A stretch of DNA of 64,000 bases from Yersinia massiliensis (GTDB lineage: Bacteria > Pseudomonadota > Gammaproteobacteria > Enterobacterales > Enterobacteriaceae), in the NCBI RefSeq assembly GCF_003048255.1, contig NZ_CP028487.1, positions 1,116,001 through 1,180,000 of the forward strand, read 5' to 3'. The notes beneath the pieces were generated by a model. That model made no database searches. It saw nothing but the letters and a program-made list of their open reading frames with translations, and was not told the origin of the DNA. The stretch's first letter is position 1. The number at the start of each line of letters is the position of its first letter. A program made the position numbers and the translations under genes. This document shows, in pieces, positions 46,168 to 57,075 of this stretch.

Positions 46168-46237
46168 TAGATTGATTATGCATTGAATTTTGCCACCTAA
46201 AAAAATCACAGAAATATGTTATAAAACTTCCTATCTT

Positions 46238-46306
46238 AATCGGCACCTTTAGGTTTGGTGGCTTTGATTTCCGTATCGGTTAACGGTTTGGTTTCTCTTG
46301 CTACGG
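46238..46306 (-). pseudogene. N-terminal remnant of a P4-type integrase
   Basis: The 22 codons VARETKPLTDTEIKATKPKG (plus AD and a stop) match the N-terminus of the integrase at 56513 (MARKTKPLTDTEIKAAKPQD). The start codon is now GTA and homology ends at 46238. The upstream repeats and a terminator like that of ssrA also match. This is what is left of an earlier integrase gene in the same site. Confidence 0.85.
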
Positions 46307-46319
46307 GTAGTCTTATGCG

Positions 46320-46374
46320 TTTAGACCCAACGGAAGCAATAGAGATTTTCGTTGGGCCTATCAATGGGCCTAAA
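46320..46374. repeat. GGCCCA repeat module, left copy
   Basis: TTTAGACCCAAC (46320-46331), GTTGGGCCTA (46351-46360) and TGGGCCTAAA (46365-46374) form inverted and direct repeats upstream of the integrase remnant. The same module with the same spacing lies upstream of the second integrase (56530-56584). Confidence 0.8.
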
Positions 46375-46425
46375 AGGTTCGGATTTAATGAGCTGGCTTC
46401 TGACTTCACGGGACAAATTGAGGAC

Positions 46426-46463
46426 ACAAAAAAGCCCGCAAACCTAAATGGGGTGCGGGCTTT
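46426..46463 (-). terminator. Displaced ssrA-type terminator
   Basis: AAAGCCCGCA and TGCGGGCTTT form a 10-bp stem with a U-tract on the minus strand. It is closely similar to the terminator after ssrA (56625-56662) and stands in the same position relative to an integrase start. It is therefore probably the terminator of ssrA before the present island entered. Confidence 0.75.
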
Positions 46464-46479: not shown

Positions 46480-47193
46480 TTATCTGGTAATACCCGGATC
46501 ATTATTTGGTGGGCTGGCTACCCCGCTACTGGCTTGCGCCGGTAACGCCTGTATTAATTGCTCCGCTAATTCAGTGAGCTGAAAACCTTCTGCCGCAGAA
46601 ACCGTCATCACAGGATGATGCGGCTTAAATGCTGTTATCACTGCTTGTTGCTTCAAAACTAAATTAGCTGCTTGCTCAGAGGATGGCAGCTGGCACAGTT
46701 CATCCCACTGGCGGCAGGGCTCTATCTTGTCGGCTTGGTTCAGCACAAATAGAAATCGGTTCGGTTGATAACCACATTGCCCAGTAAGAAAGCGATAACA
46801 CTGTTCATCAGAAGACCATGCCCTATCATCCGCTTTGAGTACCCAGATGATTAAATCCAATTCTGGCAATAAGTTACGATAGAGCTGGTGGTATTCTTTA
46901 TCTCGCTCAAGGCTTTCCCCTACACCGGGTAAATCAATAAAGGTGAGTGTATGGTTGTTCATCGACATACTGAAGCGTTGGGCTTGGCGCGTACAGCCTG
47001 AGATATTACTGACGGGGGATAGTTGGGATTGGAATAGTGCGTTGATTAAGCTGGATTTTCCAGCCCCTGTTTTACCCATCAGGCCGATGGTAGGAGAGTA
47101 GTTGATTAGGTGGTTGAGTTGGTTGAAAAACAGATTTTTAAATGAAGCAGGAAAGGCTGAAATAACCCTTCCTAATTCAGGATGTTCGTTCAT
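46480..47193 (-). CDS. YfjP/YeeP-like GTPase, C-terminally truncated
   Basis: This is a dynamin/Era-like GTPase typical of CP4-type prophage islands. G1 is GLMGKTGAGKSSL (about residues 38-50), G3 is DLPGVGES and G4 is NQAD. E. coli YfjP has about 287 residues; here the frame stops at 237. After PAQASSGVA the sequence leaves the family and reads into an att-like sequence and the ssrA terminator region, so the last 50-60 residues are missing. The G domain is complete. The role of these GTPases in islands is unknown. Confidence 0.85.
   Translation of the reverse strand: MNEHPELGRVISAFPASFKNLFFNQLNHLINYSPTIGLMGKTGAGKSSLINALFQSQLSPVSNISGCTRQAQRFSMSMNNHTLTFIDLPGVGESLERDKEYHQLYRNLLPELDLIIWVLKADDRAWSSDEQCYRFLTGQCGYQPNRFLFVLNQADKIEPCRQWDELCQLPSSEQAANLVLKQQAVITAFKPHHPVMTVSAAEGFQLTELAEQLIQALPAQASSGVASPPNNDPGITR
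46501..46517. other. Left att-like site
   Basis: ATTATTTGGTGGGCTGG resembles the ssrA 3' end plus flank (ATAATTTGGTGGAGCTGG at 56691-56708). The shared word ATTTGGTGG is exact and GCTGG follows after a 1-bp gap. It lies between the GTPase gene and the displaced terminator, so it is the likely junction between island and older DNA. Confidence 0.6.
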
Positions 47194-47309: not shown

Positions 47310-48566
47310 TTAAGCTTCAAAAATTTGCTTTTTAAATTCATGTAAAATTTTATGATTGATATAGGCTTTCATCACAGATATTGGCTCGCAATAATGGCAA
47401 TAAATAACAGGGTATTCTAATTCAGCAATAAATAAATCAGTTCCCCCTTGTCCTCTTTCCCCAACATGAGCCGATATTAATTTTTGTTCTACTCCAGGAA
47501 ATACAAAATGAGTTGTAACTTTCACATCATTATTTACTGTAGATTTGACCGCTTTCTCATAAAAAAATTGCTTAACTAAATCAGGCCAACCGGGGGCATC
47601 TTTTGGTGTCAAAGCGGTATAATATTTAGCATCGACGACGGCAACTCGTTGATTAGACTTGTCACTAATGACTATATCAGTTCTTTGCCCTTTTTCTGCA
47701 ACCTCATGATATTTAGAATTTTGTAGATAATAAGGAACAGGTAATTTTTGATTGTAAGCGTTTTCTCCGAGTAGTACTTTATGTAGCATACACTCCCATA
47801 CATTCTGAAAATGACGAGTGCCTATTATCAGTATATTATTGTTCGTACCATCCATGTTTTCAATATACTGTTTTAATAATCTGATTAAATTAATATCTCG
47901 TTCAGAATAACTTAAAGAGAGCTCGCGATTTAAATGAGCGAGTTGAGTTTCTTGGTCGCCGGAGGGGGTAGGCATTTCCTCTAGACTTACATCAAAATGA
48001 ATCTCTTCACCATTTATAAGCACACCAAATTTTTTCTTAATGTCTCTAATGATTGCAGCATGGATCCTAGCGGTTTCACTATCTGATATATTCTTTATCT
48101 GAGATGATTCAAGCTCTAAGTAAACAGGAGATGAGTTGGATATAAATGGCATATGTCGAGATACTGTACGGGACCAGTTTGTTTTGCCTTTATTAACCGA
48201 CTGAATTTTATGCCTCCTGACATATAAACCATTTGTTATATAGTCTTCAAATATACTGATTGAAGTAAAAATTAAATTTCCCCCAATCAATGTATCACCA
48301 TCAGTATCTTGTATACCTGTTAATTTGTCTGAATAGTAACGATTTAATGACTGGAACAAATAATGAGCGGCTAACTCTTTATTATCTGTTAACGCGCTGT
48401 TTACTGGCAAGAAAACAGCAGTAGTCCCAGACCAAGAAAAGAAACCACAAAAACGAACCTTATAATGATCTGGGGCTATTAACCCCATTTCACGCATCTT
48501 ACAAGACAATTCATCAGGCAACTGACTGATGATAGAACGATCTCTGTAAAATTGAAGGTTACTCAT
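47310..48566 (-). CDS. LlaJI/McrC-like restriction endonuclease subunit
   Basis: The protein has 418 residues from ATG 48566. A PD-(D/E)xK-type nuclease core is visible near residues 295-315: GQRTDIVISDKSNQRVAVVDAKYY, in which the D and the DAK are the likely catalytic residues. Pairing with a McrB-like AAA+ protein and a cytosine methyltransferase fits the LlaJI/BsuMI type of restriction system. The start overlaps the mcrB-like stop (ATGAGTAA). The AGGAG is directly adjacent to the ATG, so translation is probably coupled. ATGs at 48593 and 48608 are alternatives. Confidence 0.78.
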   Translation of the reverse strand: MSNLQFYRDRSIISQLPDELSCKMREMGLIAPDHYKVRFCGFFSWSGTTAVFLPVNSALTDNKELAAHYLFQSLNRYYSDKLTGIQDTDGDTLIGGNLIFTSISIFEDYITNGLYVRRHKIQSVNKGKTNWSRTVSRHMPFISNSSPVYLELESSQIKNISDSETARIHAAIIRDIKKKFGVLINGEEIHFDVSLEEMPTPSGDQETQLAHLNRELSLSYSERDINLIRLLKQYIENMDGTNNNILIIGTRHFQNVWECMLHKVLLGENAYNQKLPVPYYLQNSKYHEVAEKGQRTDIVISDKSNQRVAVVDAKYYTALTPKDAPGWPDLVKQFFYEKAVKSTVNNDVKVTTHFVFPGVEQKLISAHVGERGQGGTDLFIAELEYPVIYCHYCEPISVMKAYINHKILHEFKKQIFEA

Positions 48567-50229
48567 CTCCTTCTGTAACCCCTGTAGTATCATCAGCCGT
48601 GTTGCCATTCGAGATAATTAGAGATTCAATTACTTCGCTGAAAACAGGTTTTTTACCCTCAATGAACTGTTCATGCAATTCACCAAATGTGCCAATATTT
48701 TTATCAAAAATGATATTCCGTCCCTTATGACGTAATACATCATCCCAGAGATACACAAACAGTTTTCCGCTGATTGCTTCATTAGATGTCTTACTATTTG
48801 ATAATTCAGTACTACTGAGAAAAAATGGGCCGATTAAGCGATCTTCTGGAACTTTCATTTCTTTTAGTTGATGGTTGACCACTTTATTAGCAAAATCTTT
48901 CCAAGTGATATAATAAACACCCTGAGTAGTCATAATTCGCTGGTTTTGTGAACTAACTGCAGGGTTCTCAAAATCAAGCTTCATATATCTAAATGACCAA
49001 CGTCTTTTAAATGCAGTATCCAAAGGCATAACGGCTTGGTCGCTACTATTCATAGTTGCAAGTAAAGACAAATTTGCAGGCATTGATAATTTTGAACGTT
49101 CATCTAGACCCGCAGCTTTAAGTTGTTCATTAATGTAAGCCTGCATATCTGGATCAGTGAAATCAATTTCGTACTTACTTGCCCCGTTTTCTCTATCTAA
49201 GAGTTGAAACAATTCACCAAAAACAGCAGCAGCAGGTGCTCGATTAATTTCTTCAATAACTAGGTAAACATTTTGTTTTGGATTCTTTAGTGCTTCAAGT
49301 AATGCTGTGGTAAAAGGACCGGGTCTGAAAGCATAAGTAACAGAACCACTTACATTTGTTGGCTTCAAAGAACCAATAAAATCTGAATTTTGTGTATCAG
49401 GATGGAAAACGGTAACAATTTTTCTATTACCTTCTGTTAGCTCATTAAGTTGGTGGCTTTTACCTGTACCTGGGGCCCCATAATAGATGTAATTTACTCC
49501 TATTTTTGATGATGAGGTGGATACTAATGATTTGGCTTTATTATCTTCTTCTATAAAAGTAATTGGCTGCTTTTCTATTTGTAAAAAGTAGTCTCTTAAT
49601 TCATTAGAAATAGAGAAAGCTTTTACAAGTGTAAAAAGTCGAGAAGAGTTTGCAACAATGACTCGTGATGCAAGATCAAAAGATGACTGAGGAAAATCAT
49701 CTCTATTTAGCTTTTTACCAACCTCTCTTTTACTTTTTTTAAGTGGTTTATACCACCAGTCTCTATCAGTAAGAAATTTATCAAAAAAGTTAGAATCTTG
49801 TGGTGATAAGCTATTGATAAAAAGCTGAACATCTTTCCCTATTGGTGAGGAGTAGACTGATTTATCAACTTTTTTCAACGGAAGTTGGCTGAAGAATTCA
49901 TCAATACTGTCTTTTGCATGCTTCTTACTTTGCAATTGGCTCTTTAACTCGTCTAATTTTTGTTGGTACTCACTTAGAGCTGAAACTAAAGGCCAGAAAG
50001 TGAAACCATACCAAAGTAGTGAAGATGATAAGTTTGTATATAGTCCCTCTTTATTTTTTTGATGAATTGAAAATGGTCTAACATCATATTCTGATTCTGC
50101 ATCTACTTCAGACAGCGTATCTGTCAATGCTTCAGCGAATACCTTATTAATGCGTATATCTCCGCGGTATTCCAAGTTATCAAAAAATTCTCTGCATTCA
50201 TCAATCACTAAACTCAGATCTTTTAGCAC
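48559..50229 (-). CDS. McrB-type AAA+ motor subunit of a restriction system
   Basis: The C-terminal half is a McrB-type AAA+ domain: Walker A IYYGAPGTGKSHQ (about residue 255), Walker B YLVIEEINRAPAAAVFGELFQLLDR, sensor I NLSLLATMNSSDQAVMPLDTAF, and the arginine pair KRRW. The N-terminal 230 residues are helical and not like the E. coli McrB methyl-DNA-reading domain, so target recognition differs. Translation begins at GTG (50229). It is divergent from the methyltransferase with only 69 bp between. It probably uses GTP or ATP to translocate and trigger the partner nuclease. Confidence 0.85.
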   Translation of the reverse strand: MLKDLSLVIDECREFFDNLEYRGDIRINKVFAEALTDTLSEVDAESEYDVRPFSIHQKNKEGLYTNLSSSLLWYGFTFWPLVSALSEYQQKLDELKSQLQSKKHAKDSIDEFFSQLPLKKVDKSVYSSPIGKDVQLFINSLSPQDSNFFDKFLTDRDWWYKPLKKSKREVGKKLNRDDFPQSSFDLASRVIVANSSRLFTLVKAFSISNELRDYFLQIEKQPITFIEEDNKAKSLVSTSSSKIGVNYIYYGAPGTGKSHQLNELTEGNRKIVTVFHPDTQNSDFIGSLKPTNVSGSVTYAFRPGPFTTALLEALKNPKQNVYLVIEEINRAPAAAVFGELFQLLDRENGASKYEIDFTDPDMQAYINEQLKAAGLDERSKLSMPANLSLLATMNSSDQAVMPLDTAFKRRWSFRYMKLDFENPAVSSQNQRIMTTQGVYYITWKDFANKVVNHQLKEMKVPEDRLIGPFFLSSTELSNSKTSNEAISGKLFVYLWDDVLRHKGRNIIFDKNIGTFGELHEQFIEGKKPVFSEVIESLIISNGNTADDTTGVTEGDE

Positions 50230-50298
50230 AATTCACCTTGCCTGTTTAGATATACAGTGCTAATATCACCGGGAGTAAAACCGGATAAGTAGGCACGT
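50230..50298. promoter_or_regulatory. Short divergent control region of the restriction and methyltransferase genes
   Basis: Only 69 bp separate the two starts. TTAGCAC at 50223-50229 (within the first codons of the mcrB-like gene) is inverted at GTGCTAA (50257-50263), and ACCGG is repeated at 50268-50272 and 50280-50284. These could bind the HTH domain of the methyltransferase. This is inference from position. Confidence 0.4.
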
Positions 50299-51615
50299 AT
50301 GACAATTGAAATCCTAGATAAAGCAGAATATATCAGACTATTGAGAAAAAAACTTGGATTAGGTCCAACAGAAATGGCAAATCTTCTAGGCATGAATGCG
50401 ACAGGAGAAAGAACTATACGTGGTTGGGAGAATGGTGAACATACACCAACACCTGCAAAATGGCAAAGCATACTTGATTTAGAAAAATCGTTAGTCAAAC
50501 ATTCAAAAAATGCACCATTCAAACAAAAATCTTTAGAAGAAGCTGATTTTACTTTTATTGATTTATTTGCAGGGATCGGAGGGGTACGTTTGCCATTCCA
50601 AAATCTTAATGGGCATTGTGTATTTTCATCCGAATGGGATAAATTTTCTCAAAGAACGTATTTAACGAATTATGGAGAAATGCCGAACGGAGATATCACT
50701 CAAATCTCAGCAAAAGATATTCCTGACCATGATATTTTATTAGGTGGCTTCCCATGTCAAGCATTCTCACAAGCTGGATTAAAGCAAGGTTTTAACGATA
50801 CTCGAGGAACAATGTTTTTTGAGATACAGCGGATACTAGCAGAAAAAAAACCGAAAGCATTTCTCTTAGAGAATGTAAAGCAACTTCAAGGCCACGATAA
50901 AGGCCGAACACTACAAACTATAATTAACATATTACAAGGGAAGCATAATCAGGCTATACCTGATGATGTTCCAATGAGTGAAGAATCACGCCATGCACTC
51001 TCAGTAAAACTTAATTATTGGGTTGATTTTAAAATACTTCGTGCGGCAGATTTTGGCATCCCTCAAAATAGAGAACGAATTTTCATCGTAGGCTATGACA
51101 GGGATTATTTTAAAGATATAGACTTTGATAGCCTATTTAAATGGCCTATTCCACCAAAATCAGATACTCGAGTTGGCGATATTCTTCAACCACAGGAAGA
51201 ATTAGAAGCCGAGATCAAAAAAATAGGTAAAGACAAATATACTATTTCTGATCAACTATGGAATGGACATAAAAAAAGAAAAGAAGAGCACAAGATGAAA
51301 GGAAATGGTTTCGGTTATACATTATTTAATTCCGAAAGCGAATATACGAATACAATTAGTGCTCGCTATTATAAAGATGGTTCTGAGATATTAATTGACC
51401 AAAGTCATCTTGGTAAAAATCCAAGAAAACTAACGCCTAGAGAATGTGCGAATCTCCAAGGCTTTCCCAAAAACTATATTGTTGATGCTGTATCACAAGG
51501 CCAAATTTATAAACAATTTGGCAATTCCGTATGTGTTAAAGTGGTAGAGGCTGTTGCTAGGGAGTTGGTTAAAATACTTACTGTTTATAAACATAAAAAT
51601 AATAAGGTTGTTTAG
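50299..51615 (+). CDS. DNA (cytosine-5) methyltransferase with N-terminal XRE-like HTH
   Basis: Residues about 8-60 form a Cro/CI-type helix-turn-helix (RLLRKKLGLGPTEMANLLGM and ERTIRGWENGEHTPTPAKW). The rest is a C5 methyltransferase: motif I DLFAGIGGVRLPF, motif IV GGFPCQAFSQAG (catalytic Cys), motif VI LLENVKQL, motif VIII PQNRERIFIVGY and motif X FGNSVCVKVVEAVA. The target-recognition region lies about residues 290-375. It should protect host DNA from the divergent nuclease, and its HTH may limit transcription. The recognition sequence cannot be read from the protein. The gene is AT-rich, as is its surrounding island. Confidence 0.93.
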   Translation: MTIEILDKAEYIRLLRKKLGLGPTEMANLLGMNATGERTIRGWENGEHTPTPAKWQSILDLEKSLVKHSKNAPFKQKSLEEADFTFIDLFAGIGGVRLPFQNLNGHCVFSSEWDKFSQRTYLTNYGEMPNGDITQISAKDIPDHDILLGGFPCQAFSQAGLKQGFNDTRGTMFFEIQRILAEKKPKAFLLENVKQLQGHDKGRTLQTIINILQGKHNQAIPDDVPMSEESRHALSVKLNYWVDFKILRAADFGIPQNRERIFIVGYDRDYFKDIDFDSLFKWPIPPKSDTRVGDILQPQEELEAEIKKIGKDKYTISDQLWNGHKKRKEEHKMKGNGFGYTLFNSESEYTNTISARYYKDGSEILIDQSHLGKNPRKLTPRECANLQGFPKNYIVDAVSQGQIYKQFGNSVCVKVVEAVARELVKILTVYKHKNNKVV

Positions 51616-51837: not shown

Positions 51838-52290
51838 TTATATATTTTTACGTAATTCGTTTTCTACTATTACCAATGCATTGCATATTATAATTTTTCG
51901 CTGATAAATTTTTTCTGATATATCATCAGTATAAGGAAGTAAATTTCTTAAATTATTACCTTCGCCATTAGCTCTTAATAAATCAAATAAAACTGACATA
52001 CAATCAAGGCAATTATATAGATTGGAATGTTTAATGATATTAAAGTAATTGTTCGTAACTTCTTGTAATTTTAATGTTTTATTATGTAAAATGTACTTTG
52101 CGAGATTTTCGCTTGTAAGCGGTTCTTTTAGATTATTAATAGCATGGTTCAATTTAGTTGTAGCGATGCTAATTTTTTTGAGAAAACCTGAAATCGAGTG
52201 AGGATAAAACTCATCAGGATTATCACCATCTAGGCTACTTATTTTATCTATCATTACGTTATATAATTTAATTGAACGCATTATTATCAT
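51838..52290 (-). CDS. 3' segment of a frame-split hypothetical gene (150 aa)
   Basis: I do not recognise this AT-rich, helical protein (ends VENELRKNI). It is probably not an independent gene. The frame is open upstream of its first ATG for another 41 codons, back to the stop of the 287-codon frame, where an A7 run sits in a -1 slippery context (A AAA AAA TAA). Together with the two upstream frames it would make one protein of about 586 residues. Confidence 0.5.
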   Translation of the reverse strand: MIIMRSIKLYNVMIDKISSLDGDNPDEFYPHSISGFLKKISIATTKLNHAINNLKEPLTSENLAKYILHNKTLKLQEVTNNYFNIIKHSNLYNCLDCMSVLFDLLRANGEGNNLRNLLPYTDDISEKIYQRKIIICNALVIVENELRKNI

Positions 52291-52409
52291 ATTGTTAGAG
52301 TTTGAAATAATAGGGTTTTTTAGCTGTTCTGGCCTTAAGAATGCATAACTAAAATACGGACTTTGATTATTTAAAATAGGATTTATTAATGGTATTAATG
52401 AACCATTTT

Positions 52410-53273
52410 TTATTTTTTTGGCTCTAATTTTATTTTTAGTGCAAGCTTTATGATTGATATTGAGGATATTAATTTATTTGATTGGATTTCGTCTAAGTCT
52501 ATTCCATTTATAAGTCTATAGGCTTCATTTAAATTTTGGTGCCTTAGTAAATATAAAATGTCTAAAAATTGTTCATACGTATGAAATATGGGGTATTGCT
52601 TACACTCTCTTAGTTTTTTATAAATGTTAAGAAAATTATTTTCAGTATAATTCTCACGAAATATATATACATAAACTATTTCATTTATTTTTCGAATAAC
52701 ATATCTAGCATGTAGTGGTTCGTCTTTTATATTAGATAACTTTGCATAAGAAATAATTTCATCTGAACAGAGTTTAACGTTCCCTTCATTATATACATAT
52801 TTATATATATATGCATATAAAGACTTTAATGGATGACTTAAAGGGGTATTTTCATTTATTATTTTTTCATAATTATCTTTTACTAATTGTACTAAATATG
52901 TTTCATTTTGAAATGTCAGCATTGAATTTAAGGAAGTATATGCCATTTTTATTTTTTCAAACGCATTATCATAGTTTAAATTTGCACGTTTTGCATTTGA
53001 TTTGCAAATTTTTATTTTTTGGATGAACGTTTTTGTATTTTGATTTGCACTGGCTCTGATATTTCCAATTTGGATCTCAAGTAGCTTTGTATCTATAATT
53101 AATGGAAATTTCATGTTTTTGATAATTCTTTTAAGATACTTTCTAACTCCTTTTGGGAGTTCTTTAGGATCATGTAAATTGTGAGGATAACAGTCACTGA
53201 ATAGAAAGGCCTCAATATAACTATAGAAATGAATGGAGTTATCTTTAGATGAAGTGTTGAGTGTTATATGCAT
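52410..53273 (-). CDS. Middle segment of a frame-split hypothetical gene (287 aa)
   Basis: This frame begins MHITLNTSSKD and ends LALKIKLEPKK followed by TAA right after A7. It is lysine/asparagine-rich and largely helical with no motif I can name. Upstream of its ATG the frame stays open (LTEITIPAIIALD) back to an A AAA AAC heptamer in the preceding 106-codon frame. It is therefore most simply the middle of one larger gene whose frame is broken twice. If separate, it starts 2 bp after the upstream stop. Confidence 0.55.
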   Translation of the reverse strand: MHITLNTSSKDNSIHFYSYIEAFLFSDCYPHNLHDPKELPKGVRKYLKRIIKNMKFPLIIDTKLLEIQIGNIRASANQNTKTFIQKIKICKSNAKRANLNYDNAFEKIKMAYTSLNSMLTFQNETYLVQLVKDNYEKIINENTPLSHPLKSLYAYIYKYVYNEGNVKLCSDEIISYAKLSNIKDEPLHARYVIRKINEIVYVYIFRENYTENNFLNIYKKLRECKQYPIFHTYEQFLDILYLLRHQNLNEAYRLINGIDLDEIQSNKLISSISIIKLALKIKLEPKK

Positions 53274-53275
53274 AT

Positions 53276-53596
53276 CTAGAGCAATAATTGCTGGAATAGT
53301 GATCTCAGTAAGTTTTTTATTATTTCTTTTTTTGACAATTTAGATAAAATAAATTCGCTATTTAGTTGATTATATGGTTTTTCATATTTATAAAAATATT
53401 CCCTCCTTTCATCTTTATTTATCACTTTATTATGATCGATAATTTCGATTATCCCATTATAAGCATCATCTAAAAATTTTTGATGAGATATAAAATCTGT
53501 GTGGTTCCGCAATTCTTTCTTGTCAAGTTCTTTTGATAGTAACCCTAGAATTTTACAGACATCAATCATTATATTGGCAAACTTGTGTGTATACAT
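53276..53596 (-). CDS. 5' segment of a frame-split hypothetical gene (106 aa)
   Basis: This is the first of three successive minus-strand frames. It begins MYTHKFANIMIDVCKILGLL, with a weak GAGAAG ribosome site. The last 11 residues (LLRSLFQQLLL) lie beyond an A AAA AAC heptamer, where a -1 shift enters the 287-codon frame. The unit is divergent from alpA, and the 96-bp gap between them must hold both promoters. Function unknown; the place next to a restriction unit in an island suggests defence, which is inference. Confidence 0.5.
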   Translation of the reverse strand: MYTHKFANIMIDVCKILGLLSKELDKKELRNHTDFISHQKFLDDAYNGIIEIIDHNKVINKDERREYFYKYEKPYNQLNSEFILSKLSKKEIIKNLLRSLFQQLLL

Positions 53597-53692
53597 TTTC
53601 TTCTCTATTGGTCTCGGGATTTTTACGAGTTATTTTCTCATAACTTATGGCAAAGTCGAAGCATGTAAACAAAGCTGATAAGAGAGAACGAA

Positions 53693-53923
53693 ATGCTGAA
53701 TCCAAAAGAAAATGTAAATCAATCAAACTCACCTATACGTATCCTGCGAATGACAGAGTTAACGGTAATGCTTGGTATATCCAGATCAAGTATCTATGAA
53801 AAGCTTAATCCTCGATCGAAATACTACGATCAAGACTTTCCTAAGCCTATCAAGCTTGGTGCGGCATCTGTGGGATGGCAGTACGCATCTATCGAAAAAT
53901 GGTTAGTTTCACGAATTGCTTAG
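53693..53923 (+). CDS. AlpA-family phage/island regulator
   Basis: The 76-residue protein is an AlpA-type MerR-like helix-turn-helix (RILRMTELTVMLGISRSSIYEKLN, then FPKPIKLGAASVGWQYASIEKWL). In CP4-57 AlpA activates expression of the integrase and so element excision. Such proteins also act as directionality factors. A ribosome site GAGAACG lies before the ATG. It is followed 23 bp later by a DUF3987-like start, the usual island order. Confidence 0.88.
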   Translation: MLNPKENVNQSNSPIRILRMTELTVMLGISRSSIYEKLNPRSKYYDQDFPKPIKLGAASVGWQYASIEKWLVSRIA

Positions 53924-53946
53924 TTGAATTAATAAAGGGGTATGAA

Positions 53947-54198
53947 ATGTCTAAACAAAAAAAAGAACTGTGCTTCAAGCTAGATGTATTACCAAAATAT
54001 TTTCAAGATTTGATTGTTGAGATCCATGCTAAAACAGGCGCAGCAGCTGAGGTTATTTTCCCTACAATGTTGGGCGTTATGGCTTTGTCCTGTCAGGACA
54101 TGTTCGATGTCAAATATAAAGGTGGAATACAGCATCCAGTATCTATCTTTAGCATCGTACTTGCTAGGTCTGGAAGGAGAAAAACAACGGTATACTGA
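53947..54198 (+). pseudogene. DUF3987-like replication/primase protein, cut by IS
   Basis: The 83 residues from ATG 53947 match the N-terminus of DUF3987-type proteins (PTMLGVMALSCQDMFDVKYKGG, then VSIFSIVLARSGRRKTTVY, where SGRRKTT is the start of the P-loop region). The frame is ended by TGA that is the first triplet of the IS element (54196). Full-length proteins have several hundred residues, so the ATPase domain is gone. AAAGGGG gives a strong ribosome site. Confidence 0.75.
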
Positions 54199-54213
54199 AT
54201 CGCCACGGATAAT

Positions 54214-55026
54214 CTAGACACTTCCGAGCCGTTGATAATATTGTTTTTCATATTCCGTCGGTGGCATCTGATCACTCGAACCATGCCGACGCTTACTGTT
54301 ATAAAACATTTCGATGTAATCAAAAATATCGCTGCGTGCTTCTTCCCGTGTTCCGTAGATCTTTTTCTTTATCCGTTCACGCTTCAGTAGCTGGAAAAAG
54401 CTTTCTGCAACTGCATTGTCGTGACAGTTACCGCGACGGCTCATACTGCCCTCCAGACCGTGTGATTTCAGGAACGACTGCCACTCATGGCTTGTGTACT
54501 GACTACCTTGGTCAGAATGAACCAGCACCTGTTTTTGGGGATTACGTCGCCACACGGCCATCAAAAGCGCATTCAGAACAATATCTTTTGTCATCCTGGG
54601 TTGCATTGACCAGCCGATAACTTTGCGCGAGAACAGATCAACAACTACGGCCAGATACAGCCAGCCTTCGTAGGTTCGGATGTAAGTTATGTCCGTTACC
54701 CAACGTTCATCCGGAGCGTCCGGGTTGAACTGTCGCTGGAGCCTGTTGGGTGTCACGATACTGACTTCACCTTTACGCACTCGTGGGCTTCGATACCCGA
54801 CCTGAGCCTTTATCCCGGCACGCTTCATCAGCCGCCAGACCCGGTTAATCCCACATTGTTGCCCGCTATCTCGTAGGTCGAGATGGATCTTGCGATAGCC
54901 ATAAATGCAACCGGACTCCAGCCAGAACTGTTTGATTTGTCCTGTCAGTCTGAGATCCGCCTGAAGCCGTGGTGAATGCGGCTGCTGAAGCCAGGTGTAA
55001 AACCCACTCGGATGAACATTCAGCAC
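54214..55026 (-). CDS. IS3-family transposase OrfB (DDE integrase domain)
   Basis: OrfB carries the catalytic core. The DDE residues are visible in WVTDITYI, LVHSDQGSQYTS and CHDNAVAESFFQLLK. An HTH-like N-terminal part precedes (GYRKIHLDLRDSGQQCGINRVWRLM). The natural product is OrfAB made by -1 frameshifting; the OrfB frame starts further upstream than the first usable codon at 55026 (GTG), inside the OrfA end. This domain looks intact. Confidence 0.9.
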   Translation of the reverse strand: MLNVHPSGFYTWLQQPHSPRLQADLRLTGQIKQFWLESGCIYGYRKIHLDLRDSGQQCGINRVWRLMKRAGIKAQVGYRSPRVRKGEVSIVTPNRLQRQFNPDAPDERWVTDITYIRTYEGWLYLAVVVDLFSRKVIGWSMQPRMTKDIVLNALLMAVWRRNPQKQVLVHSDQGSQYTSHEWQSFLKSHGLEGSMSRRGNCHDNAVAESFFQLLKRERIKKKIYGTREEARSDIFDYIEMFYNSKRRHGSSDQMPPTEYEKQYYQRLGSV

Positions 55027-55421: not shown

Positions 55422-56513
55422 TCAGTGGGCTAGAGCGGCTTCAATCACATCAGGTGGGAAGCCTTGCTCATTGAGAGCGGTACTAGCAATTGAGCGTAGG
55501 CCGTGTGAGACCAGTACACCACCGAATCCAGCGCGTTTTAATGCAGCATTGACGGTTTGGCTATTCATCGGTTGAGTCGGCTTGATACGGCTAGGAAAGA
55601 TAAACTCACGATTAACACTGAGTGGTTTCATTAGTTCTAAGATAGCTAAAGCAGCGTCAGATAACGGAACAGTGTGCTCACGGTTCATTTTCATTCTAGC
55701 AGCCGGTATCTTCCATTCCTTGGTTTCAAAGTTGATTTCGTCCCAACGGGCTTCAGCGGCTTCGGCAGGGCGGGATATGGTAAGCAGCTGCCACATAAAC
55801 AAACATCTGGTAGGTAAGATAATATTAGCTGTACGCATTGTTTGCATGAGTTGCGGTAACTGCTCAGGGCGAATACTTGGCATGTTTTTTTTCTTTGGTT
55901 TTTCAAAAGCCTTACCAATGTTGATACTTGGAACAGCATCAATTAATCCAGTATTTTGAGCATAGATCATCACTTCGTTGATACGTTGACAAAGGCGACG
56001 AACAGTTTCTAATGCGCCTCTAGCTTGAACGGGCTGTATTGCTTGGACCAATATATGCGCTTTGATATCAGTAATGCTGATATCGCCTATAGCAGGAAAC
56101 ACATCTCGCTCAAGTGAACGCCAGATATCATTACCGTAATCTTCGGTTACGGTGGACTTCTTCACTTCCCACCAACGTTCAGCGACAAGTTGAAAGGTAT
56201 TGGTTTTGGCCTCTTGAGAGTTTCTTATTTGATCTTTTTGATATTCTTGAGGGTCAATATCTTTCGCCAGTAATGAGCGAGATTCTGCTCTAAGTTTTCT
56301 AGCATCTGAAAGTGTGACAGCAGGGTAGGCACCAAAACTTTGTTTGGTTCTTTGTTTTGTATAAGGGCGGTAGTAACGGAATTGCCATAACTTGCTTCCG
56401 CTAGATTTGATTAGCAGTGTGAGTCCATCACCATCATACAGCTGATAGTCTTTGTCCTGCGGTTTAGCTGCTTTGATTTCGGTATCGGTTAATGGCTTAG
56501 TTTTTCTTGCCAT
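55422..56513 (-). pseudogene. P4-type tyrosine integrase, C-terminally truncated by IS
   Basis: This integrase of the ssrA island starts MARKTKPLTDTEIKAAKPQD (N-terminal DUF4102 arm-binding domain, YQLYDGDGLTLLIKSSG). The catalytic part contains RPAEAAEARWDEI (first Arg), the H-x-x-R box SHGLRSIASTALNE and ends at AALAH. A TGA supplied by the IS end stops it there, before the tyrosine that attacks DNA and about 40 further residues. It should be inactive. ATG 56513 is the likely start although there is no strong ribosome site. The N-terminus points to ssrA as usual. Confidence 0.92.
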
Positions 56514-56529
56514 GAAAAATCTGCATGCG

Positions 56530-56584
56530 TTTAGGCCCAACAAAGATGTTAGTTCTTTTCGTTGGGCCTATCAATGGGCCTAAA
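56530..56584. repeat. GGCCCA repeat module upstream of the integrase
   Basis: TTTAGGCCCAAC (56530-56541), GTTGGGCCTA (56561-56570) and TGGGCCTAAA (56575-56584). The first is inverted to the other two. The location between att and int suggests integrase arm-type sites or an autoregulatory operator. It is matched by the left copy at 46320-46374. Confidence 0.8.
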
Positions 56585-56624
56585 GGAATTAGCTTGGGTG
56601 GGATAAAATAGGACAGCATAGGAC

Positions 56625-56662
56625 ATAAAAAAGCCCGCAACTCATTGAGTTAGCGGGCTTTT
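56625..56662 (-). terminator. Intrinsic terminator of ssrA
   Basis: On the minus strand AAAAGCCCGC-TAACTC pairs with GAGTTGCGGGCTTTT (one bulged base) and a U-run follows. It lies 33 bp after the tmRNA 3' end. Confidence 0.88.
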
Positions 56663-56690: not shown

Positions 56691-56708
56691 AATTTGGTGG
56701 AGCTGGGG
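56691..56708. other. Right att site at the 3' end of ssrA
   Basis: The island joins the chromosome at the tmRNA acceptor end (ATAATTTGGTGGAGCTGG), a well-known target of P4-type integrases. The tmRNA sequence is complete, including encoded CCA. Confidence 0.7.
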
Positions 56709-57075
56709 GGATTTGAACCCCCGTCCGAAATTACTACGCCGTCGGCACTACATGCTTAGTCCAGTCATTACATTCGCCGGTTAGCTGCGGACGGACACGC
56801 TACTAACAAACTAGCTTGATTGGGTTTAACGCTTTCACCCCAAGCAAGGTGTCCACGCGATCTCTTTTGGGTTTGACCTCTCTTGATCCCCGTCCTAAGA
56901 GCGGAGGCTAGGGAGAGAGGGAATCTTCAGTTTCTTAGGCTGATTAAGCTGCTAAAGCAGCAGATTCGTATTGCGAGTCGTTTGCAATTATTTTTTTTGC
57001 GGTTTTTTACGAGGCCTCCGCACCTCGGCATGCACCTTGGGTTTCGCGAATCCCGTCGAATCCAGAATCAGCCCC
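56695..57075 (-). ncRNA. ssrA: Transfer-messenger RNA (tmRNA)
   Basis: tmRNA with SmpB rescues stalled ribosomes. The 5' end GGGGCTGATTCTGG (57075 downwards) and the 3' end GTTCAAATCCCCCCAGCTCC plus ACCA (ending 56695) form the tRNA-like domain. The tag frame runs 56985-56944 and encodes ANDSQYESAALAA followed by TAA, the Yersinia tag. At 381 nt it is slightly longer than the E. coli RNA (363). smpB lies just upstream on the same strand. Its 3' end is the integration site of the adjacent island. Confidence 0.97.

What the first reader, a model, noticed from the sequence alone, without database searches (positions are those of the whole stretch)
51838..53596. One gene of about 586 codons split by two -1 shifts at slippery A-runs
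Three minus-strand frames follow each other. At the end of the first, ATA AAA AAC contains the heptamer A AAA AAC; a -1 shift there enters the second frame (LTEITIPAIIALD then MHITLN). At the end of the second, CCA AAA AAA TAA contains A AAA AAA just before the stop; a -1 shift there enters a frame open for 41 codons before the ATG of the third. Both junctions are homopolymers and both shifts are in the same direction. Options: double A-loss (decay or phase variation), homopolymer undercalling in the assembly, or programmed frameshifting. I recognise no family; it neighbours a restriction unit in an island.
Basis: partly seen in the sequence, partly recalled or inferred. Interest (0 to 1): 0.72.

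Follow-up and report, generated by a model that had tools for sequence, protein, structure and literature searches.

The report
Island gene broken at two A-runs
Three neighbouring reading frames are the pieces of one mobile-island gene that lost its reading frame at two runs of A; close relatives carry it whole, and its function is still unknown.

Summary
Three minus-strand frames (53596-53276, 53309-52410, 52413-51838) are pieces of one gene: a continuous 586-residue Providencia rettgeri protein (P0008) matches them at 94, 89 and 90% identity. Of 16 relatives with DNA in hand, 12 have one open frame and 4 a broken one. Both breaks fall in A-runs. Assembly error is unlikely: 128 conserved genes around the window, with 114 homopolymers of six or more, show no frame split, and another source has the same isolated middle frame with two substitutions. 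Programmed frameshifting is unlikely: homologues are continuous and no stimulatory RNA fold follows either run. Decay fits best, as the element has also lost most of DUF3987, its Gp2 gene and the integrase C-terminus. The second run is also broken in two other genera, perhaps four, so switching is not excluded. The family is unnamed, all-helical, and sits divergently beside alpA in ssrA-type defence islands. The host is most likely a Yersinia, so the gene was described only.

The parts
53276..53596 (-). first piece of the split gene (N-terminal, 106 aa; the first 96 residues align with the family)
   Evidence: 94% identical to residues 1-96 of P0008
53313..53318 (-). A-run at the first frame break
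   Evidence: read; the match to P0008 changes frame here
52410..53309 (-). second piece (middle, 299 aa from the break, ATG at 53273)
   Evidence: 89% identical to residues 89-395 of P0008; same isolated 287-aa frame in P0001
52413..52419 (-). A-run at the second frame break; the matching run is also broken in some relatives
51838..52413 (-). third piece (C-terminal, 191 aa open from the break, ATG at 52290)
   Evidence: 90% identical to residues 384-586 of P0008; continuous with the middle piece in P0002
53693..53923 (+). alpA-type regulator, divergent from the split gene
   Evidence: PF05930, E 5.2e-17; alpA on the opposite strand upstream in 16 of 16 relatives
53597..53692 (.). 96-base divergent intergenic region between alpA and the split gene, conserved between elements
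   Evidence: 10 elements aligned with a few bases of each gene, mean column identity 67%
53899..54273 (+). remnant of the DUF3987 gene (130 of 515 residues)
   Evidence: PF13148; tblastn, 77% to the Morganella copy
54214..55026 (-). IS3-type transposase frame beside the DUF3987 remnant
   Evidence: frame; the family name is my recognition of the sequence, not a library hit
55422..56543 (-). integrase, C-terminally truncated (373 of 423 residues)
   Evidence: 97% to the Morganella integrase
56695..57075 (-). ssrA (tmRNA), insertion locus
47310..51615 (.). LlaJI-type restriction-modification unit: nuclease 47310-48608 (-), McrB-like ATPase 48559-50229 (-), cytosine methylase 50299-51615 (+)
   Evidence: PF09563, PF07728, PF00145; PADLOC type II models

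Best explanation
The three frames are one former gene of a mobile island, inactivated by length changes of two A-runs. SHOWN: intact homologues are single proteins of about 573-680 residues; the three pieces match one of them end to end; the gene sits divergently beside alpA in every relative examined; the host element has lost other core genes. INFERRED: replication slippage at the A-runs caused the breaks, after the element could no longer move or while the gene gave no benefit, and the gene now makes at best truncated products. INFERRED, less sure: the intact protein is an all-helical, part TPR-like partner or regulator of the alpA/DUF3987/Gp2 core module, not a piece of the defence cargo.
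For: One continuous 586-residue homologue covers all three frames. A profile search, which scored only the 7995 best candidates, lists 52 proteins, 42 of them of 483 residues or more, and 7 of the 9 other species genomes that carry the gene, of 391 examined, have it open. The first break falls inside a predicted long helix (89-116) of the P0008 model (pLDDT 80.5, pTM 0.73), so the pieces are not natural domains. The same isolated middle frame occurs in another source. Of 128 conserved genes in 464 kb around the window none is frame-split against a genus mate, although they hold 114 homopolymers of six or more. Decay of the element: DUF3987 130 of 515 residues, integrase 373 of 423, Gp2 not found.
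Against: Each piece is free of other stops and still 89-94% identical to P0008, so the breaks are recent or selection has not been absent for long. The second junction is continuous in the closely related P0002, and the matching run is broken in other genera, which would also suit a switching tract. No raw reads were available.
Confidence: 0.82

Rival explanations
1. Phase variation: the A-runs are contingency tracts and the gene is switched on and off within populations.
For: The matching second run is broken in Pseudescherichia vulneris L020 and in E. coli AW1.7 L028, and the database proteins P0046 (398 aa) and P0045 (408 aa) end or depart at that place. A close protein, P0002, is continuous there. 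Of 6 relatives with a run of seven or more there, 4 are open across it and 2 broken.
Against: The run is short for a switching tract (general knowledge), and 10 of 16 relatives have no run of seven or more there. Two of the four broken relatives are broken elsewhere (L021, L027), and L020 has several breaks, as expected of plain decay. Breaks at two runs at once are not the usual pattern of a switch.
Confidence: 0.1
2. Assembly error: homopolymers were undercalled and the gene is intact.
For: Both breaks are at homopolymers; close proteins are continuous at one (P0002) or both junctions (P0008). In the control, 4 of 129 and 2 of 128 genes did not align over 90% of their length, for reasons not examined.
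Against: 0 frame splits in 129 genus-mate and 128 own conserved genes, the latter with 114 homopolymers of six or more and 23 of seven or more, in 464 kb. P0001, which differs from the window at two residues, is the same isolated 287-aa frame.
Confidence: 0.05
3. Programmed -1 ribosomal frameshifting or transcriptional slippage joins the three frames into one product.
For: Slippery A-runs stand at both junctions and the downstream frames are open.
Against: Homologues are continuous and most have no long run there, so the arrangement is not conserved. No stable RNA fold follows either run (z -0.73 and +0.79 over 81 bases; pseudoknots not modelled). In the passages read of PMC1088944 the runs studied for transcriptional slippage are of nine, and a run length conserved among homologues is taken as the mark of purposeful use; neither holds here.
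Confidence: 0.03

Closest known systems
Continuous homologue P0008, hypothetical protein OUB44_001672 of Providencia rettgeri
   Same: 586 residues; matches the three frames at 94, 89 and 90%
   Different: One open frame; the window copy is split at two A-runs
[not shown]
   Same: Distant member, 26.7% over residues 4-366 of P0008; divergent from alpA beside YfjI (DUF3987) and Gp2 genes; found in 1030 of 5426 complete E. coli genomes
   Different: 605 aa, open; next to a different integrase and site, near ycdU
tmRNA-integrated genomic islands I23, I44, I55 (PMC12595487, passages read)
   Same: Integration downstream of tmRNA, tyrosine integrase, AlpA, inovirus Gp2-like protein, restriction-modification and other defence cargo
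   Different: Described in Pseudomonas; the passages seen do not mention this gene family or DUF3987; the window element is truncated
CP4-57 island of E. coli K-12 (recalled, not tested here)
   Same: ssrA site, alpA, yfjI and yfjJ genes, from memory
   Different: Gene order differs, from memory; not compared by a call

Membership tests
Unnamed ~600-aa alpA-adjacent protein family | End-to-end sequence homology to intact members | tested here: met
   three frames cover residues 1-586 of P0008
Unnamed ~600-aa alpA-adjacent protein family | Position divergent from alpA, next to DUF3987 | tested here: met
   window and 16 of 16 relatives; DUF3987 is a fragment in the window and in L020
Unnamed ~600-aa alpA-adjacent protein family | Continuous open reading frame | tested here: not met
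   window broken twice; 12 of 16 relatives open
Pseudogene by homopolymer slippage | Frame breaks in homopolymers relative to intact orthologues | tested here: met
Pseudogene by homopolymer slippage | Breaks real, not assembly errors | tested here: inconclusive
   indirect controls favour it; raw reads not available
Programmed ribosomal frameshifting | Frame arrangement conserved among homologues | tested here: not met
   homologues continuous
Programmed ribosomal frameshifting | Stimulatory RNA structure downstream | tested here: not met
   z -0.73 and +0.79 (pseudoknots not modelled)
Phase-variable contingency locus | Run length mixed within one population | not testable with these tools
   no reads
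Phase-variable contingency locus | Open and broken copies among related strains at the same run | tested here: met
   second run
Known defence-system protein | Match to a PADLOC model | tested here: not met
   none up to E 0.1 for the three pieces; among seven members one weak match (P0015 to Cas6b, E 0.0015 over 58 residues), taken as chance
TPR-type regulator (RRNPP, such as NprR or Rap) | Fold match well above helical background | tested here: inconclusive
   [not shown]

The most novel reading that the evidence does not exclude
An undescribed core gene of alpA-type defence islands, all-helical and sharing a conserved divergent promoter region with alpA, is switched off again and again at one A-run, so that run length sets whether an island keeps control over its own mobility or its defence cargo.
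Probability: 0.08. Interest if true: 0.6.

Novelty: new member of a known kind. Interest (0 to 1): 0.24.

Why it matters
The split itself is ordinary decay. The by-product may be of more use: a protein family with no convincing match in Pfam, NCBIfam, PADLOC or PHROGs sits at a fixed place beside alpA in defence-carrying islands of Enterobacterales and, as a distant member, in about a fifth of complete E. coli genomes (1030 of 5426). Knowing that the three frames are one gene keeps them from being read as three small proteins and gives the family its true length.

Tried and rejected
Three separate genes: rejected, because the pieces match one continuous protein and the first break lies inside a predicted helix.

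Plasmids and phages: the middle piece found none; P0008 found three E. coli records in the plasmid collection; P0015 found no phage. Viral contigs: 2 loci with A2, none with P0008. Class sample: only the window's own genome of 369. Genus: only the window's genome of 25, though proteins named Yersinia ruckeri (P0007) and Yersinia enterocolitica (P0021) belong to the family. E. coli: DNA of L006 found none; DNA of L009 found 2 of 5426 genomes, two assemblies of strain AW1.7.

Rows left out of the count of 16 relatives: L096 (E. coli H240, the same gene as L095), the hits H30, H31 and H34-H93, and the shorter loci L005-L010, L013-L015 and L100-L111, which repeat genomes already counted or the window's own.

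Full report
WHAT IS THERE. The window lies at 1,116,001-1,180,000 of contig 1 of a 5.16-Mb genome in three contigs. A 20-kb piece of contig 3 matches 27 plasmid records, all 27 from Yersinia, though no more than 14% of the piece is covered in the eight listed; the host is most likely a Yersinia. Because that genus includes a listed germ, the split gene was described only. Searches confirm the three minus-strand frames; one search finds no further stop inside them. The frame changes at the A-runs 53313-53318 and 52413-52419.

ONE GENE, NOT THREE. The middle piece alone found homologues in 9 other genomes of 391 examined in the same GTDB family (10 of 392 with the own genome). A profile search, in which only the 7995 best candidates were scored, listed 52 proteins, 40 of them of 573-620 residues, with names from Klebsiella, Citrobacter, Cronobacter, Pectobacterium, Pantoea, Enterobacter, Yersinia, E. 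coli and others. The closest to the window, P0008 of Providencia rettgeri, is 586 residues long. By tblastn it matches the window in three frames, residues 1-96 at 94%, 89-395 at 89% and 384-586 at 90%. P0002, 425 residues and 95% identical over the part of the middle piece that it covers, runs through the second junction without a break; its start lies downstream of the first junction, so it says nothing about that one. Intact copies therefore exist.

HOW OFTEN IS IT BROKEN. Among 16 relatives with DNA in hand, 12 have one open frame and 4 do not: L020 Pseudescherichia vulneris, L021 (titled Xenorhabdus sp. BG5), L027 Enterobacter cloacae and L028 E. coli AW1.7. In the even sample of species genomes, 7 of 9 relatives are open. 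L020 and L028 are broken at the A-run that matches the window's second junction; the database proteins P0046 (398 aa, Klebsiella quasipneumoniae) and P0045 (408 aa) end or depart from the family there, and P0047 (408 aa) departs a little earlier. Six of the 16 relatives have a run of seven or more at that place: L018, L019, L021 and L093 are open across it (L021 is broken elsewhere), L020 and L028 are not; the other ten have no such run. The run is thus a weak spot of one branch. In E. coli a distant member (P0054) occurs in 1030 of 5426 complete genomes. Of 1032 records 60 were listed, taken evenly down the ranking: in 57 a single hypothetical protein is annotated under a match over the whole query (in one of these, H92, the matched stretch is a base shorter, so its frame may be broken), in two an IS has inserted (H34, H62), and one keeps only a fragment (H93). 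Whether the other 972 are open was not checked.

NOT AN ASSEMBLY ERROR, PROBABLY. In 464 kb around and including the window, 129 genus-mate ORFs of 343 tested and 128 own ORFs of 377 tested had a partner at 60% identity or better; none was frame-split, 125 of 129 and 126 of 128 aligned over 90% of their length, and the few others were not examined. The 128 own genes hold 114 homopolymers of six or more, 23 of seven or more and 5 of eight or more. P0008 against the same sequence gives three frames, the positive control. Independently, P0001, from a contig of 5119 bases and differing from the window at two residues, is the same isolated 287-residue frame; the listing gives no source name for it. 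Raw reads were not available.

NOT A PROGRAMMED SHIFT, PROBABLY. The homologues are continuous, so the arrangement is not a conserved feature. The RNA after each run does not fold clearly better than shuffled sequence (z -0.73 and +0.79; pseudoknots were not modelled). Low-level slippage at the runs is possible but not shown.

THE ELEMENT. The gene starts 96 bases from alpA, on the other strand. In 16 of 16 relatives alpA lies upstream on the opposite strand (about 1.1 kb away in L095), followed by a DUF3987 gene (16 of 16; a fragment in L020, cut by the end of the stretch in L018, L011 and L012, broken in L027); a Gp2-type gene follows in 12 of 16, and in three of the other four the stretch ends before it. 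The intergenic region is well conserved across ten elements (mean column identity 67%), which supports the start codon and marks the gene as part of the element's core rather than cargo. Beside it lies variable cargo: LlaJI-type restriction-modification in the window, Qat in E. coli AW1.7. The window element is damaged: integrase 373 of 423 residues, DUF3987 130 of 515, no Gp2 match, and an IS3-type transposase frame in between. Elements inserted at tmRNA with integrase, AlpA, Gp2-like protein and defence cargo are described from Pseudomonas in PMC12595487 (passages read).

VERDICT. A real, correctly read observation with an ordinary cause: a mobile-island gene losing its frame at A-runs in a decaying element.

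Noticed in passing
window 46218-46441 and 56470-56640: The left end of the island carries a remnant of an integrase start (residues 2-37, 53%) and an exact 29-base repeat (46346-46374) of the stretch between integrase and ssrA (56556-56584), as if a second element or an att-side duplication had been there.
   Followed up: partly
window 46480-47193: A YeeP/YfjP-like GTPase gene matches residues 10-226 of the 290-residue Morganella copy and then ends, next to the integrase remnant; probably C-terminally truncated.
   Followed up: partly
window 47310-51615: LlaJI-type restriction-modification unit with an HTH-bearing cytosine methylase on the + strand and an McrB-like ATPase plus LlaJI nuclease on the - strand.
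   Followed up: partly
L028:7331-22960: E. coli AW1.7 has the same kind of ssrA island with Qat defence genes, an IS2-interrupted integrase and the same family gene, annotated as two hypothetical proteins and broken at the run that matches the window's second junction.
   Followed up: yes
L095:8998-10815: A distant member, annotated only as hypothetical protein, lies between an integrase and alpA/YfjI/Gp2 genes and occurs in 1030 of 5426 complete E. coli genomes.
   Followed up: partly
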